This document shows, one piece after another, positions 19,072 to 25,265 of a stretch of 64,000 nucleotides of DNA (positions are counted from its first letter, which is position 1; each line of letters opens with the position of its first letter). The position numbers and the translations under genes were made by a program. The notes beneath the pieces are model-generated. The model saw only the letters and a program-made list of their open reading frames with translations. It ran no database searches and was not told the DNA's origin. The stretch is taken from assembly GCF_036226685.1 (NCBI RefSeq), contig NZ_CP109009.1:4154001-4218000 (forward strand). The letters are read 5' to 3'. Source of the stretch: Streptomyces sp. NBC_00690. GTDB taxonomy: Bacteria > Actinomycetota > Actinomycetes > Streptomycetales > Streptomycetaceae.

Positions 19072-20079
19072 TCAGATGCCCAGTTCCTTCTCGATCGCCA
19101 TGGCCACGGCTGGCCATGGGACATTCGGCTCGCCGAACAGTCGCCAATAGCGATACGAGGCGCGGACCAGAGAGCTGACACCCAGCCGCGCCGAATCAGG
19201 GTCGATCGTTCCGATCACCCGGCGTGTGATTCCGCCGGCCCCCCGCGCGGCGGGACGGACGCCATGTCCAAGGAGGAGAGTGGCGGTGCGAACGGCGTCC
19301 AGGGTTGCGGGGGGAGCCAGGGTCGCGAACCTGCCGAAGACGAGGTCTCTCCACCCCAGTTGCGTACGTGCCCAGGCCAGCCGTTCCAGTCCGGCGCCGA
19401 GGTCTACCGCCATGCGCTCAGGGTTGTCGGTATTCCAAAGGAGGACGACGTCCCCGAGAGTCAGGTTGAGGTGGCTGAAGCGAAGGGTGATGCCTTCGAC
19501 TTGTCGGCGCCTCCATGTTGCCAGTTTGCCCTGGACGCTGATGTGGCGCGCATGGAAACCCAGTCGCGACAGCACACTGAGCCAGCCGTCCAGGATCACA
19601 CCGTATTCGTCGATGCGCTGAATCGGCTGGACACGGGAAACGTTGACGAACGAGGTCAGAAATCCTTCCCGGAGGTCGCCCGATGCGTCACGCTGCCCGG
19701 TGAAACGGACAACAGGCTGGGGCAGGAAGCCGCTGCGGTAGGTCAGCGGACGCCCGTCCTTGAGGAGGGGGTCAAGGGCTTGGACGGCCGAGATCGTCAG
19801 CTCGGTCTCGCGGCCCCACCGAATTGGCAGGCAGGTGTCCTGCGGGACGCCCTGGGCCGCGAAACCCGCCTTCAGCCCTGCCAGCAGCTGTTCCCACGAC
19901 GGAGCCCGACGAGGCGGACAGTACGGCGATCCTCTGTGCACATGCTCGATCGCGATCCGTCTGTCGGAGACGGTGAACTCCCATTGTGCTCCGAAGACTT
20001 GACGTAGGACCGCAGGCAAGCGGACCTCCGAACAGGCCGACGGCCCCAGTACGAGCTCTCTGGAACCGCCCGTCAGCAT
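19072..20079 (-). CDS. AlaRS-like class II aminoacyl-tRNA synthetase-fold protein
   Basis: This 335-aa protein is the last gene of the six-gene operon. Its ATG overlaps the glycosyltransferase stop by 7 bases. The segment TLGDVVLLWNTDNPERMAVDLGAGLERLAWA resembles the end of the alanyl-tRNA synthetase catalytic core, where motif 3 normally reads DTGMGLERLA. The N-terminal motifs 1 and 2 are hard to recognise. There is no AlaRS C-terminal tRNA-recognition, editing or C-Ala domain, and the protein is far shorter than AlaRS (about 880 aa). It may activate an amino acid without a normal tRNA substrate; this is inference. Fold assignment is moderately confident, function unknown. Confidence 0.55.
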   Translation of the reverse strand: MLTGGSRELVLGPSACSEVRLPAVLRQVFGAQWEFTVSDRRIAIEHVHRGSPYCPPRRAPSWEQLLAGLKAGFAAQGVPQDTCLPIRWGRETELTISAVQALDPLLKDGRPLTYRSGFLPQPVVRFTGQRDASGDLREGFLTSFVNVSRVQPIQRIDEYGVILDGWLSVLSRLGFHARHISVQGKLATWRRRQVEGITLRFSHLNLTLGDVVLLWNTDNPERMAVDLGAGLERLAWARTQLGWRDLVFGRFATLAPPATLDAVRTATLLLGHGVRPAARGAGGITRRVIGTIDPDSARLGVSSLVRASYRYWRLFGEPNVPWPAVAMAIEKELGI

Positions 20080-21095
20080 GACCGCGTCGACATCGCGGTG
20101 AAGTGGCGGGCCGGATCGAAGCGATGCATCCCGACCTCCTGGACCTCCGTGTGCTTGAGGCCCTCGGCCTGCTCGATCGCAAGCGCGAGAAGCTCCGCTG
20201 CTGCCTCGTCGTCTTCGTCGGGGTCGGCCACCGTGATCACGCCTGTCTGATCGCACAGGGCCGCCTCGGCGCAGGTTCCCTCGCGCCACGTGAGCGCAGC
20301 CATAGGGGTGCCGGCGCGGAGAGACTCGCCGAAGACGGCGGCGCCGGCCTCCACGTACGTACGGGCATAGGTGTAGACGAAGACGGAGGCGTCGCGGATG
20401 GCAGCGGTCTTGGCGGGGCCGCCGAGTTCGCCGGCCCGCTTCACGTGGCCTGCGCTGAAGAGTCGCTCGTGGCGTCGCACGTATGCCTCATCGAAGACGG
20501 GGCCGACGATCCGTATCCGGCGGCCGAGGATCTGGGCGGCTCGGACTGCGATGTGCGGCGCCTTCTCCTCATCTATACGGCCGAGCCAGACGAGGTCGTC
20601 ACCGGCGACGGCCGGCGGCTCCTCCTCGTCCAGACCGAGGTGGACGGCGAGTTCAGGTATCGGCCGGTGGTCTGCGTACCGCTCGATCATTTCGGGTGAG
20701 TAGCAGTAGAGCCGCGACCGTTTGCCGTCGAAGGCCGCGTCGGCGTGCTGGAAAACGGGCGAGTGCTGGAACGTGGCGACGTCGCAGTCCAGCTCACTCC
20801 ACGTGCGGGTCCAGGCCGGAAGCGACGGGTACTCGTGCCCCACGACCAGGAGGTCGTACCCGCTGTCGCGCAGCTCGCGCTCGGCGAGCGTTCCGGGAGT
20901 GATGTCCTCCAGGCGGACCGGCTTACGGACCCAGTCGTGTTCCAGGTCCGTGAGCCAGCCCGGCCCGAGGAGGTGTAAGTCGGCGCCTGCGGCTCGGGCG
21001 CCTACGGCGACCGCCCACAGCCATCGTTCGATCCCGCCGTAGCCGGCAGGTGGGAAGGCGTAGCTACCAGGGAAGTCGCAGACGCCGACGAGCAC
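20073..21095 (-). CDS. GT-B (GT4-like) glycosyltransferase
   Basis: This is a 340-aa glycosyltransferase starting at GTG 21095, one base after the serS stop (TAAC-GTG). The N-terminal acceptor domain contains PPAGYGGIERWLWAVA, the typical GGxE start of GT4 enzymes. The C-terminal donor domain contains VWLGRIDEEKAPHIAV, then VYTYARTYVEAGAAVFGESLRAGTPMAAL with an E-x7-E-type motif. No membrane segment is visible, so it is probably cytosolic and acts on a soluble small molecule. Its place in the operon argues for a modified metabolite. Donor and acceptor unknown. Confidence 0.82.
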   Translation of the reverse strand: MLVGVCDFPGSYAFPPAGYGGIERWLWAVAVGARAAGADLHLLGPGWLTDLEHDWVRKPVRLEDITPGTLAERELRDSGYDLLVVGHEYPSLPAWTRTWSELDCDVATFQHSPVFQHADAAFDGKRSRLYCYSPEMIERYADHRPIPELAVHLGLDEEEPPAVAGDDLVWLGRIDEEKAPHIAVRAAQILGRRIRIVGPVFDEAYVRRHERLFSAGHVKRAGELGGPAKTAAIRDASVFVYTYARTYVEAGAAVFGESLRAGTPMAALTWREGTCAEAALCDQTGVITVADPDEDDEAAAELLALAIEQAEGLKHTEVQEVGMHRFDPARHFTAMSTRSC

Positions 21096-24015: not shown

Positions 24016-25265
24016 CAGCTCAGCACGATCCCGTCGGAGACCAGCTCGTCGGTCAGCGCCGGGAACTCGCTCAGCGTCTCCATGACGAGGGCCTGCACCT
24101 TGTCAATCTCGGCGTCCGGAGCCGAGAGGCGGACCAGTATTCGCCATGGCTGATCCAGACGCTGGCCGGTGGTGCTGACCAAGTGCACTTCCGCGTGCCC
24201 GTCCGTGGTCTCGTGCAGGCGCTCGGCCAGACGCTGTGCAGCGATGTTGTAGAGCTTGCCCACGTGGTACACGGGGTTCTTGCCGTTGGCTCCCTCCAGG
24301 TTCATCGGCCGCAATGGCGTGATCAGGCCGTTGACCCGGTTGCCGCGACCGACGACGCCCTCGTCCCCCGACTCGATCGAGCTTCCGGTGTAGGTCAGGT
24401 ACAGCTCGTCCTTCTCCGGGACGTCGCGGGCGTTGAGCCGGAAGCGCGCCTGCGCACCGGACAGCCGGAGACCGGCCAGGCGGTAGCACTCGGCCAATAC
24501 GGTCTCCGCGTTGCGGATGTATTCGGCCCGGCTGGCGACGTGGCGCGACTTCTGCGGGACGCACAGCACGACGTCGGCCTGGCCGCCGTCCCAGTAGCCC
24601 ATGAGCTTGACGTCGGCCCCACACCATGGGTGGGCGCGGGTGAACTCGCTCGCGCCGGAAAAGTGATCAACCAGCTCGCGAACGAACGACTCAAAGACGT
24701 TCTCCGGAGCCCAGCCTGTGCCGAGGGACGTGTCGTTCGACAGCCGGACCCGCCGTTCCCGCAGGTCATCGACGGAGCGCGGATTGAACCAGCGTGTACG
24801 GTCCGGGACCCCGTCGCCGGTGAGGACCGCGCCCGGACTGGAGTTGCTGGTGATGTTGAAGACGATGTCGAGGTGGTCTGACACCTCAGGGAGCCGCTCG
24901 GCGAAGAACGCCCTGACCTCAGTCTCGACGATCTCCTGGACCGGGATCTCCTCGCCCCCGCACATGGGCGCTGCCCGCCCATTGACCAGGACACGCACCG
25001 GGTCCGTCATCCTGCCGGCGCCGTATCGGACCTCGCTGGCCCCGCCGAGGAGGGCGAGCTTGTCGAAGTTGTGGTGCAGCACGGCGCCGAAGCGCGCGAC
25101 GGTGTAGTGGCTGTAGGCGCGGGATAGCCGCTCGGCGAGGTGGTCGGCCAGGGTGTCCGGATGGCCGAGGCCCTTCCGCTCGACGATGGTCGTCGTGTCC
25201 GGCCCGGCCATGGCGGTGTCGATGACGAGGTGACTGTTGTTGATGATCGTGCTCGTACGAGGCAT
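24015..25265 (-). CDS. Archaeal-type S-adenosylmethionine synthetase
   Basis: This is a 416-aa methionine adenosyltransferase of the archaeal (AdoMet_Synthase, MAT-gamma) family rather than bacterial MetK. Signature blocks are VERKGLGHPD (29-37), RYGAGRMTDPV (80-90), and ESGDEGVVGRGNRVNGLITP with KNPVYHVGKLYN (298-340). Length matches archaeal enzymes (about 400 aa). ATG 25265 has a GGGAG site. It heads the operon's tightly overlapped section. Streptomyces also need a housekeeping MetK, so this copy probably supplies AdoMet, or an analogue from a methionine variant, to a dedicated pathway. Confidence 0.92.
   Translation of the reverse strand: MPRTSTIINNSHLVIDTAMAGPDTTTIVERKGLGHPDTLADHLAERLSRAYSHYTVARFGAVLHHNFDKLALLGGASEVRYGAGRMTDPVRVLVNGRAAPMCGGEEIPVQEIVETEVRAFFAERLPEVSDHLDIVFNITSNSSPGAVLTGDGVPDRTRWFNPRSVDDLRERRVRLSNDTSLGTGWAPENVFESFVRELVDHFSGASEFTRAHPWCGADVKLMGYWDGGQADVVLCVPQKSRHVASRAEYIRNAETVLAECYRLAGLRLSGAQARFRLNARDVPEKDELYLTYTGSSIESGDEGVVGRGNRVNGLITPLRPMNLEGANGKNPVYHVGKLYNIAAQRLAERLHETTDGHAEVHLVSTTGQRLDQPWRILVRLSAPDAEIDKVQALVMETLSEFPALTDELVSDGIVLS

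What the first reader, a model, noticed from the sequence alone, without database searches (positions are those of the whole stretch)
19072..25265. Six-gene operon joining archaeal-type AdoMet synthetase, kinase, phosphatase, SerRS, glycosyltransferase and an AlaRS-like enzyme
Six minus-strand genes overlap or abut by a few bases (24015, 23089-23092, 22382-22389, 21095-21097, 20073-20079), so they are one transcript. The mix is not a known pathway to me: an AdoMet source, an APH-fold kinase with a matching phosphatase, a full SerRS, a GT4-type glycosyltransferase and a stand-alone AlaRS-like core. A divergent class IV PLP enzyme and an XRE-FGE protein complete it. The best reading is a small-molecule pathway that either uses Ser-tRNA as a building block (valanimycin VlmL precedent) or targets SerRS and carries a resistant copy (albomycin precedent). 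A defence system based on tRNA charging is an alternative.
Basis: partly seen in the sequence, partly recalled or inferred. Interest (0 to 1): 0.88.

Follow-up and report, generated by a model that had tools for sequence, protein, structure and literature searches.

The report
Mobile SerRS and AlaRS-core gene cassette
A tightly packed gene set carried by mobile DNA in Streptomyces and related soil bacteria probably makes a serine-carrying small molecule that blocks the enzyme loading serine onto tRNA, and brings its own spare copy of that enzyme, which some strains have kept alone, as a resistance gene would be.

Summary
The six overlapping minus-strand genes are real and form one conserved unit. 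In 63 loci from 12 named actinobacterial genera, found by searching with the AlaRS-like protein, all six are intact and in order in 45, with recurrent few-base overlaps. A second APH-type kinase precedes them in about half of the loci; in the window it is a remnant. The divergent aminotransferase is found in 1 of 63. The unit is mobile cargo: here in a 16.5-kb island at tRNA-Ser, elsewhere often among conjugative-element and defence genes.

Key evidence: of 199 genomes of the window's genus, 11 hold SerRS, MAT, kinase, GT4 and AlaRS-like genes together and 6 hold the SerRS alone; none holds the other four without it. A supported tree places the lone SerRS in three spots inside the operon clade, with dN/dS 0.10-0.19. 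The AlaRS-like protein is the AlaRS aminoacylation core.

Product, target and scaffold are inferred. My searches found no published description.

The parts
24015..25265 (-). archaeal-type methionine adenosyltransferase (MAT)
   Evidence: PF01941 E=4.5e-91; profile matches archaeal MAT structures, best 4hpv E=1.2e-94
23089..24015 (-). APH-fold small-molecule kinase (KIN1)
   Evidence: PF04655 APH_6_hur E=1.4e-9; HxDxYxEN and DP motifs invariant in 12 sequences
22382..23092 (-). histidine phosphatase, CobC-like branch 1
   Evidence: PF00300 E=5.1e-18; CobC structures 6e4b and 6nru about 1.5e-12
21097..22389 (-). full-length seryl-tRNA synthetase with N-terminal tRNA-binding arm; 40-41% identical to the host housekeeping SerRS
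   Evidence: TIGR00414 E=3.9e-135; 2dq3 E=4.5e-173 over profile positions 14-424
20073..21095 (-). GT4 retaining glycosyltransferase, EX7E motif conserved
   Evidence: PF13439/PF00534 below cutoff; 2iuy E=2.2e-11, tetrahydrobiopterin glucosyltransferase, SenB; E249 and E257 invariant in 15 sequences
19072..20079 (-). AlaRS aminoacylation-core protein (called AlaL here), without AlaRS editing and C-terminal domains
25539..25805 (-). 88-aa N-terminal remnant of a second APH-type kinase (KIN2), whole (297 aa) in the near relative L016
25982..26755 (+). divergent class IV aminotransferase; accessory, not conserved with the operon
   Evidence: PF01063 E=1.9e-34; 1 of 63 loci
26821..27813 (+). XRE helix-turn-helix plus FGE-sulfatase domain; occupies the variable regulator position
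15233..15320 (+). tRNA-Ser(GGA), left end of the island
15258..15336 (.). left copy of the 79-nt direct repeat (att-like)
31790..31868 (.). right copy of the 79-nt direct repeat, 96% identical
18163..18954 (-). SPDY/DUF317 protein; members of its cluster lie in the fetched stretch of 13 other loci
   Evidence: PF03771 E=4.2e-25

Best explanation
It is a mobile biosynthesis-plus-immunity cassette. The SerRS has two jobs: it supplies activated serine (Ser-AMP or Ser-tRNA) and it withstands the product. The AlaRS-core protein takes the serine (or alanine) and joins it to a small acceptor. GT4, the kinases, the phosphatase and the AdoMet synthetase build, glycosylate and reversibly phosphorylate that acceptor, perhaps an adenosine- or aminosugar-type scaffold. 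The product is a seryl-AMP-like inhibitor of ordinary SerRS, so cells without the cassette are inhibited and cells with it, or with its SerRS alone, survive. Shown here: the operon, its co-conservation, its mobile surroundings, the AlaRS-core fold, and repeated retention of the SerRS alone. Inferred: that a product exists, its target, its scaffold, the order of the steps and how it leaves the cell.
For: Six genes intact and in order in 45 of 63 loci; the SerRS-GT4-AlaL triad intact in 56 of 63, and all that is seen in L061. In one set of 199 genomes of the window's genus AlaL, MAT and APH occur in the same 11; GT4 in those 11 (frame interrupted in two) plus a pseudogene in G152; the SerRS (81% identity or more) in 17, six of them without the rest (the phosphatase and KIN2 were not searched this way). 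Solitary SerRS fall in three separate places inside the operon clade (starred branches force 3 changes), with dN/dS 0.10-0.19 in 9 pairs, 4 of them between solitary copies only; G152 keeps an open SerRS beside a GT4 with three stops. All 21 genomes checked, the 6 included, also have the housekeeping SerRS, so the extra copy is not a replacement. AlaL is the AlaRS core and keeps the motif-2 Arg, motif-3 Arg and presumed amino-group Asp (D226) in 18 of 18. Precedents, from passages: AbmK/AbmF in albomycin, AcmD/AcmF in ascamycin, AcmF also accepting mischarged Ser-tRNA(Ala), AgnB2 on the agrocin 84 plasmid. All six genes show dN/dS below 0.53 in 9 pairs.
Against: No transporter family matched two or more of 147 neighbour proteins, unusual for an antibiotic cluster. 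No enzyme that visibly builds a nucleoside or consumes AdoMet is among the operon proteins. In L018 GT4 and AlaL are open while the SerRS is truncated, and in G099 a second, decayed copy keeps MAT rather than SerRS, so lone survival is not exclusive to SerRS. Solitary SerRS could serve stress translation rather than resistance. Neighbours are defence genes more than biosynthetic ones. AcmF, unlike AlaL, has lost the key Asp (D232E), so AlaL may instead activate its own amino acid. AlaL was not compared with AbmF or AcmF, whose sequences were not at hand.
Confidence: 0.55

Rival explanations
1. The SerRS is only a supplier of Ser-tRNA for a building-block step, as VlmL is in valanimycin; the product has nothing to do with SerRS inhibition.
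For: The SerRS is complete with its tRNA arm. SerRS of clusters that hold LPG_synthase_C (VlmA-like) proteins branch beside four of the operon SerRS (93/87, under the tool's star threshold).
Against: No LPG_synthase_C/GNAT, CDPS or LanB-type transferase among the operon proteins. A pure supplier would be useless alone, yet six genomes hold only the SerRS, with low dN/dS.
Confidence: 0.13
2. It is an anti-phage or anti-plasmid defence system: the enzymes make an intracellular toxic or protective metabolite, or modify tRNA, on infection.
For: At least one conjugative-element gene in 24 of 63 loci and defence genes nearby: PprPIWI (L005), PbeA and PbeC directly upstream (L064), methyltransferases, a type III restriction enzyme. 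146 PADLOC families hit by 147 neighbours against 26 by 113 random proteins. No recurrent transporter.
Against: Of the six operon proteins and KIN2 only the SerRS has a PADLOC match, a 15.9-bit MukB-like one. Family counts are not protein counts, and mobile islands gather defence genes whatever their cargo. Defence gives no obvious reason for a SerRS kept alone.
Confidence: 0.15
3. SerRS is a resistance gene, but AlaL activates and attaches its own amino acid with ATP (as MshC does in mycothiol synthesis, recalled), independent of SerRS.
For: AlaL keeps the motif-2 and motif-3 Arg and the presumed amino-group Asp in 18 of 18. GT4 plus phosphatase plus aaRS-like ligase recalls mycothiol biosynthesis (recalled).
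Against: The SerRS-GT4-AlaL triad is intact in 56 of 63 loci, suggesting a functional pair; an AlaRS-like transferase that uses a partner's charged tRNA is described.
Confidence: 0.12
4. A spare-part set: extra MAT and SerRS back up primary metabolism under stress, and the other genes are unrelated passengers.
For: MAT and SerRS have the lowest dN/dS (0.06-0.19 and 0.04-0.11).
Against: Fixed order and overlaps in 45 of 63 loci; AlaL, MAT, APH and GT4 together in 11 of 11 carriers.
Confidence: 0.04

Closest known systems
Albomycin cluster: AbmK (SerRS2) with AbmF (aaRS-like condensing enzyme); passages seen in PMC9032320
   Same: A divergent second SerRS in the cluster, said to both supply seryl-adenylate and give immunity, paired with an aaRS-like enzyme that joins serine to the scaffold.
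   Different: No radical SAM, PLP transaldolase or siderophore family among the operon proteins; here an archaeal-type MAT, GT4, kinases and a phosphatase; mobile surroundings. AlaL was not compared with AbmF.
Ascamycin cluster: AcmD (extra AlaRS) with AcmF (truncated AlaRS-like transferase); outline and passages seen in PMC12945691
   Same: Full aaRS that is supplier and resistant copy, plus a protein reduced to the AlaRS aminoacylation and tRNA-recognition part.
   Different: The full enzyme here is SerRS, not AlaRS; AlaL keeps the Asp that AcmF has changed to Glu; no sequence comparison made.
Agrocin 84 and AgnB2 on plasmid pAgK84; passages seen in PMC5059758
   Same: Toxin aimed at a tRNA synthetase and its resistant synthetase travel together on transferable DNA.
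   Different: LeuRS rather than SerRS; biosynthetic genes not compared.
Valanimycin VlmL (SerRS) with VlmA; passages seen in PMC2922099, otherwise recalled
   Same: SerRS from VlmA-like clusters form one clade that branches beside some operon SerRS.
   Different: No VlmA-like transferase among the operon proteins.
Nucleocidin NucGT; passages seen in PMC10616807
   Same: A glycosyltransferase in a nucleoside antibiotic cluster that glucosylates adenosine-type nucleosides.
   Different: No sequence comparison made; cited only as a possible role for GT4.

Membership tests
aaRS-inhibitor cluster with a self-resistant synthetase | second, divergent copy of the target synthetase inside the cluster | tested here: met
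   operon SerRS 40-41% identical to the housekeeping SerRS, which is also present
aaRS-inhibitor cluster with a self-resistant synthetase | the extra synthetase confers resistance | not testable with these tools
   only indirect: six solitary copies with low dN/dS
aaRS-inhibitor cluster with a self-resistant synthetase | a product that inhibits the synthetase | not testable with these tools
   needs chemistry
Albomycin-type cluster | PLP transaldolase, radical SAM enzyme and siderophore genes | tested here: not met
   none among the six operon proteins by Pfam or NCBIfam
Ascamycin AcmF-type transferase | protein reduced to the AlaRS aminoacylation and tRNA-recognition part | tested here: met
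Ascamycin AcmF-type transferase | changed adenylation residues (N219Q, D232E) | tested here: not met
   Asp D226 in 18 of 18, Asn N216 in 15 of 18 by my count of the printed alignment; correspondence assigned by eye
VlmL/VlmA seryl-tRNA-dependent pathway | LPG_synthase_C/GNAT-type transferase using Ser-tRNA | tested here: not met
   none among the operon proteins; one member tested in the azoxy-like clusters is LPG_synthase_C
Canonical SerRS | tRNA-binding arm, motifs 2 and 3 | tested here: met
   PF02403, PF00587, TIGR00414; alignment
Canonical AlaRS | editing and C-terminal domains | tested here: not met
   335 aa, all within the part aligned to AlaRS 2-418
Actinomycete integrative and conjugative element | integrase, replication and transfer genes between att repeats | tested here: not met
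   window island has att-like repeats and a SPDY gene, but no integrase, relaxase or rep match among the 20 ORFs scanned (not every ORF of the island was scanned); such genes in 24 of 63 other loci
Known anti-phage defence system | match to PADLOC-DB proteins | tested here: not met
   only a 15.9-bit MukB-like match for the SerRS among six operon proteins and KIN2

The most novel reading that the evidence does not exclude
A family of mobile-element 'chemical addiction' cassettes: conjugative elements that make a seryl (or alanyl) glycoconjugate inhibitor of SerRS and carry the only resistant SerRS, so that cells losing or lacking the element stop translating. The SerRS is the stable hub around which the acceptor-building half (KIN2-MAT-APH) and the acceptor-joining half (GT4-AlaL) are exchanged by recombination, diversifying the product, and hosts have escaped about three times by keeping the SerRS alone as an anti-addiction gene.
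Probability: 0.25. Interest if true: 0.88.

Novelty: new variant of a known kind. Interest (0 to 1): 0.72.

Why it matters
Albomycin is the one natural SerRS inhibitor named in the passages read here. A compact six- or seven-gene cassette spread through actinobacteria is a direct target for resistance-guided mining: the AlaRS-core protein alone has 479 relatives at E<=0.001 in a capped search (its weak end may include ordinary AlaRS), and those of the 120 listed that bear a name are called hypothetical or uncharacterized. The solitary SerRS copies give a ready test of resistance. The location on conjugative elements would link antibiotic biosynthesis to the upkeep of mobile DNA. It also pairs an AlaRS-derived core with a SerRS, a combination I did not meet in the papers seen.

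Tried and rejected
Rejected or unproductive: (1) AT4 and XRE-FGE as pathway members: AT4 in 1 of 63 loci; others have NUDIX, creatininase, HAD, NAD-binding or AAA genes with other XRE regulators. (2) A special tie to tRNA-Ser: in L011, L017, L023 and L050 a tRNA-Thr lies near the integrase end (57 of the 63 loci scanned). (3) Plasmid or phage carriage: no AlaL match in the plasmid, phage or viral-contig collections. (4) Replacement of the housekeeping SerRS by the solitary one: all 21 genomes checked keep it. (5) A phylum survey with AlaL found only the window's own genome among 396, so distribution is sparse. (6) Two further SerRS genes in G116 and G145, fetched in the hope of an albomycin cluster, gave a different cassette (L153) and an unclear locus (L154). 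(7) A profile alignment of AlaL with AlaRS covered only 79 columns from motif 3 on (prob. 95.9); my script found AlaRS in only 2 of 7 fetched regions, so the AlaRS side held two AlaRS and two paralogues.

The phosphatase and KIN2 were not searched in the 199. One search reports 196 of 199 genomes with a match, but 185 of these are weak (about 30 bits or less), many in frames of about 890 aa, the size of ordinary AlaRS. Neighbourhood genes come from a simple GC-frame script. The PADLOC comparison used 147 of 241 nearest-neighbour proteins (150 drawn, the 3 largest I noticed dropped for the residue limit) and 113 of 139 control proteins (most edge ORFs dropped); it counts families, not proteins, and one helicase gives most control hits. 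The support tree used 39 operon, 6 solitary, 10 azoxy-like and 1 housekeeping SerRS; the FastTree run used all rows. The housekeeping root is a long branch, so the place of the root and of the azoxy-like clade is unsure. Pairwise dN/dS between a solitary and an operon copy mixes both branches. Paper searches; none listed a description of this operon; most subscription journals are not held.
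Full report
1. What is there. The window lies in a 9.17-Mb genome; the closest named protein matches are Streptomyces, which I take as its genus. Six minus-strand genes overlap or abut: archaeal-type MAT, APH-fold kinase, histidine phosphatase, SerRS, GT4 glycosyltransferase and an AlaRS-like protein, called AlaL here. Upstream lies an 88-aa remnant of a second APH-type kinase (KIN2); L016, 94-100% identical over this stretch, has it whole at 297 aa. 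The block sits between tRNA-Ser(GGA) and a second copy of a 79-nt repeat 16.5 kb away. No integrase matched among 20 ORFs scanned in and near the island, so it looks like a decayed element. The site is a hotspot: several relatives have extra repeat copies about 2-50 kb from the tRNA, and in G011 the right-flank homology begins about 2.8 kb from it instead of 17 kb.

2. Is it conserved? A genome-contig scan with an AlaL alignment gave 63 loci from Streptomyces, Kitasatospora, Actinacidiphila, Nocardiopsis, Streptomonospora, Kribbella, Myceligenerans, Sinosporangium, Actinomadura, Actinokineospora, Solihabitans and Nocardia, plus two records named to family only. All six genes are intact (by my length cut-offs) and in order in 45 of 63, with KIN2 as well in 30; the SerRS-GT4-AlaL triad is intact in 56. 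In the other 18 one or more genes are short, missing, displaced or cut off by a contig end. L061 shows only SerRS-GT4-AlaL. Identity to the window runs 64-98% for SerRS, 58-95% for GT4 and 49-98% for MAT. Pairwise dN/dS is below 0.53 for all six genes in 9 pairs and lowest for SerRS (0.04-0.11) and MAT (0.06-0.19). Because these loci were chosen by AlaL, five genes were also searched one by one in the same 199 genomes of the window's genus: AlaL 11 (E below 1e-150), APH 11, MAT 11 at 77% identity or more (one further genome at 43%), GT4 12, SerRS 17 at 81% or more. Eleven genomes have all five; in two of them (G057, G156) the GT4 frame is interrupted. No genome has one of the other four without the SerRS. 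At least five of the 11 are also among the 63 loci.

3. The lone SerRS. Six genomes have the SerRS without the rest: G152 (95% identity), G102, G115, G154, G170 and G146 (85-90%). G152 still shows a GT4 with three stops and a 40-residue match to the phosphatase; in the other five no other operon gene matched in the stretch fetched (11-20 kb). All six SerRS are open at 430 aa. In a maximum-likelihood tree of 56 SerRS the solitary copies fall in three places inside the operon clade, and starred branches force three changes (FastTree agreed). Nine comparisons with each other or a near operon copy give dN/dS 0.10-0.19. All six, among 21 genomes checked, keep the housekeeping SerRS. A gene useful only with its pathway would not be expected to persist this way; a resistance gene would. 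Against this, a decayed copy in G099, which also has a full set, keeps MAT, and L018 has a truncated SerRS while GT4 and AlaL are open.

4. A second home for this SerRS lineage. Ten genomes carry a SerRS 58-60% identical to the window's. In my clustering 8 of the 10 loci share a ketosynthase and 7 share a protein whose L135 member is LPG_synthase_C, the VlmA type; an AurF-like protein of L137 matched weakly, below the curated cutoff. One locus (L134) lies on a 5.5-kb contig and shows no such context. These SerRS form one clade (99/97) beside four operon SerRS from Actinomadura, Actinokineospora and Solihabitans (93/87, not starred). So this branch of SerRS, distinct from the host enzyme, seems to serve small-molecule pathways more than once. 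Calling these azoxy-type clusters rests on memory of the valanimycin genes and on a search listing.

6. Mosaic structure. Window and L016 are 94-100% identical from 29 kb down to about 21 kb, then fall to 58-71% across AlaL. Window and L003 are about 52-57% upstream, 81-87% in MAT, 69-78% in the first kinase, and 92-99% from the phosphatase through AlaL. The window's operon thus looks recombinant, with break points on either side of the SerRS region; the dS values agree.

7. Neighbourhood. At least one of relaxase, integrase, DUF3631 or DnaB-like protein, a small protein I read as excisionase, or a linked HTH protein lies in the fetched stretch of 24 of 63 loci. XRE regulators with a variable enzyme are common (NUDIX in 15 loci, NAD-binding 8, creatininase 7, AAA 7, HAD 6). 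Neighbours include PprPIWI (L005), PbeA and PbeC directly upstream in Solihabitans (L064), and restriction-modification genes. This could mean a defence role or shared mobile islands. No transporter family matched two or more of the 147 neighbours scanned.

8. Mechanism. Three published systems, known to me here from passages, show the logic. AbmK is reported to feed albomycin biosynthesis and give immunity, with AbmF as the aaRS-like condensing enzyme (PMC9032320). AcmD makes Ala-tRNA and is the more resistant AlaRS, while truncated AlaRS-like AcmF moves the amino acid, also from mischarged Ser-tRNA(Ala), onto a nucleoside (PMC12945691). AgnB2 and the agrocin 84 genes share a transferable plasmid (PMC5059758). 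The operon has a like pair: complete SerRS plus AlaRS core. I therefore infer a seryl-AMP mimic. GT4 and the kinase/phosphatase set could build or mask it; glucosylation of adenosine-type nucleosides by NucGT is a precedent (PMC10616807). MAT could provide an adenosyl unit. These last assignments are guesses.

9. Verdict. I rate it a new variant of a known kind (aaRS-inhibitor cassette with a self-resistant synthetase); my ten paper searches listed no description of it.

Noticed in passing
window 15233-31868; G010, G005, G007, G002, G006, G011: The dnaX-linked tRNA-Ser is an integration hotspot: relatives carry further repeat copies about 2-50 kb away, in G010 two in tandem; G011 is nearly empty.
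   Followed up: partly
window 15222-17407: SNF2/ResIII-type helicase match in one ORF, with neighbouring ORFs in other frames that read like its continuation; apparently a broken gene at the island's left end.
   Followed up: no
window 30448-30915: Small protein with hydrophobic stretches that looks to me like a SLATT-type membrane protein; no Pfam or PADLOC match.
   Followed up: no
window 28283-29308 and 29772-30467: Two DUF6192 proteins in the island, function unknown.
   Followed up: no
L066:1619-2872, L067:2295-3479: A different stand-alone AlaRS-like core of about 400 aa; similar-sized frames gave weak hits in a good number of the 199 genomes.
   Followed up: partly
L153 (G116) 5891-13201: Another cassette behind an XRE regulator and serine-hydrolase-like pair resembling that at L036, L038 and L128: a divergent SerRS (42%), an APH-like kinase and what looks to me like an AspRS/AsnRS. 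It may be a cousin using another aaRS pair.
   Followed up: partly
L135-L143: Recurrent cluster with ketosynthase, LPG_synthase_C-type and AurF-like proteins and its own SerRS.
   Followed up: partly
L064:1384-5767: PbeA and PbeC genes directly upstream and in the same direction as APH-HisP-SerRS-GT4-AlaL, with MAT on the other strand downstream.
   Followed up: partly
L144 (G099): A second, decayed operon copy with an intact MAT (91%) and pieces of KIN2 and APH, in a genome that also has a full set.
   Followed up: partly
G000:C1:1121271-1122407: A further archaeal-type MAT (40% identity) elsewhere in the window's own genome.
   Followed up: no
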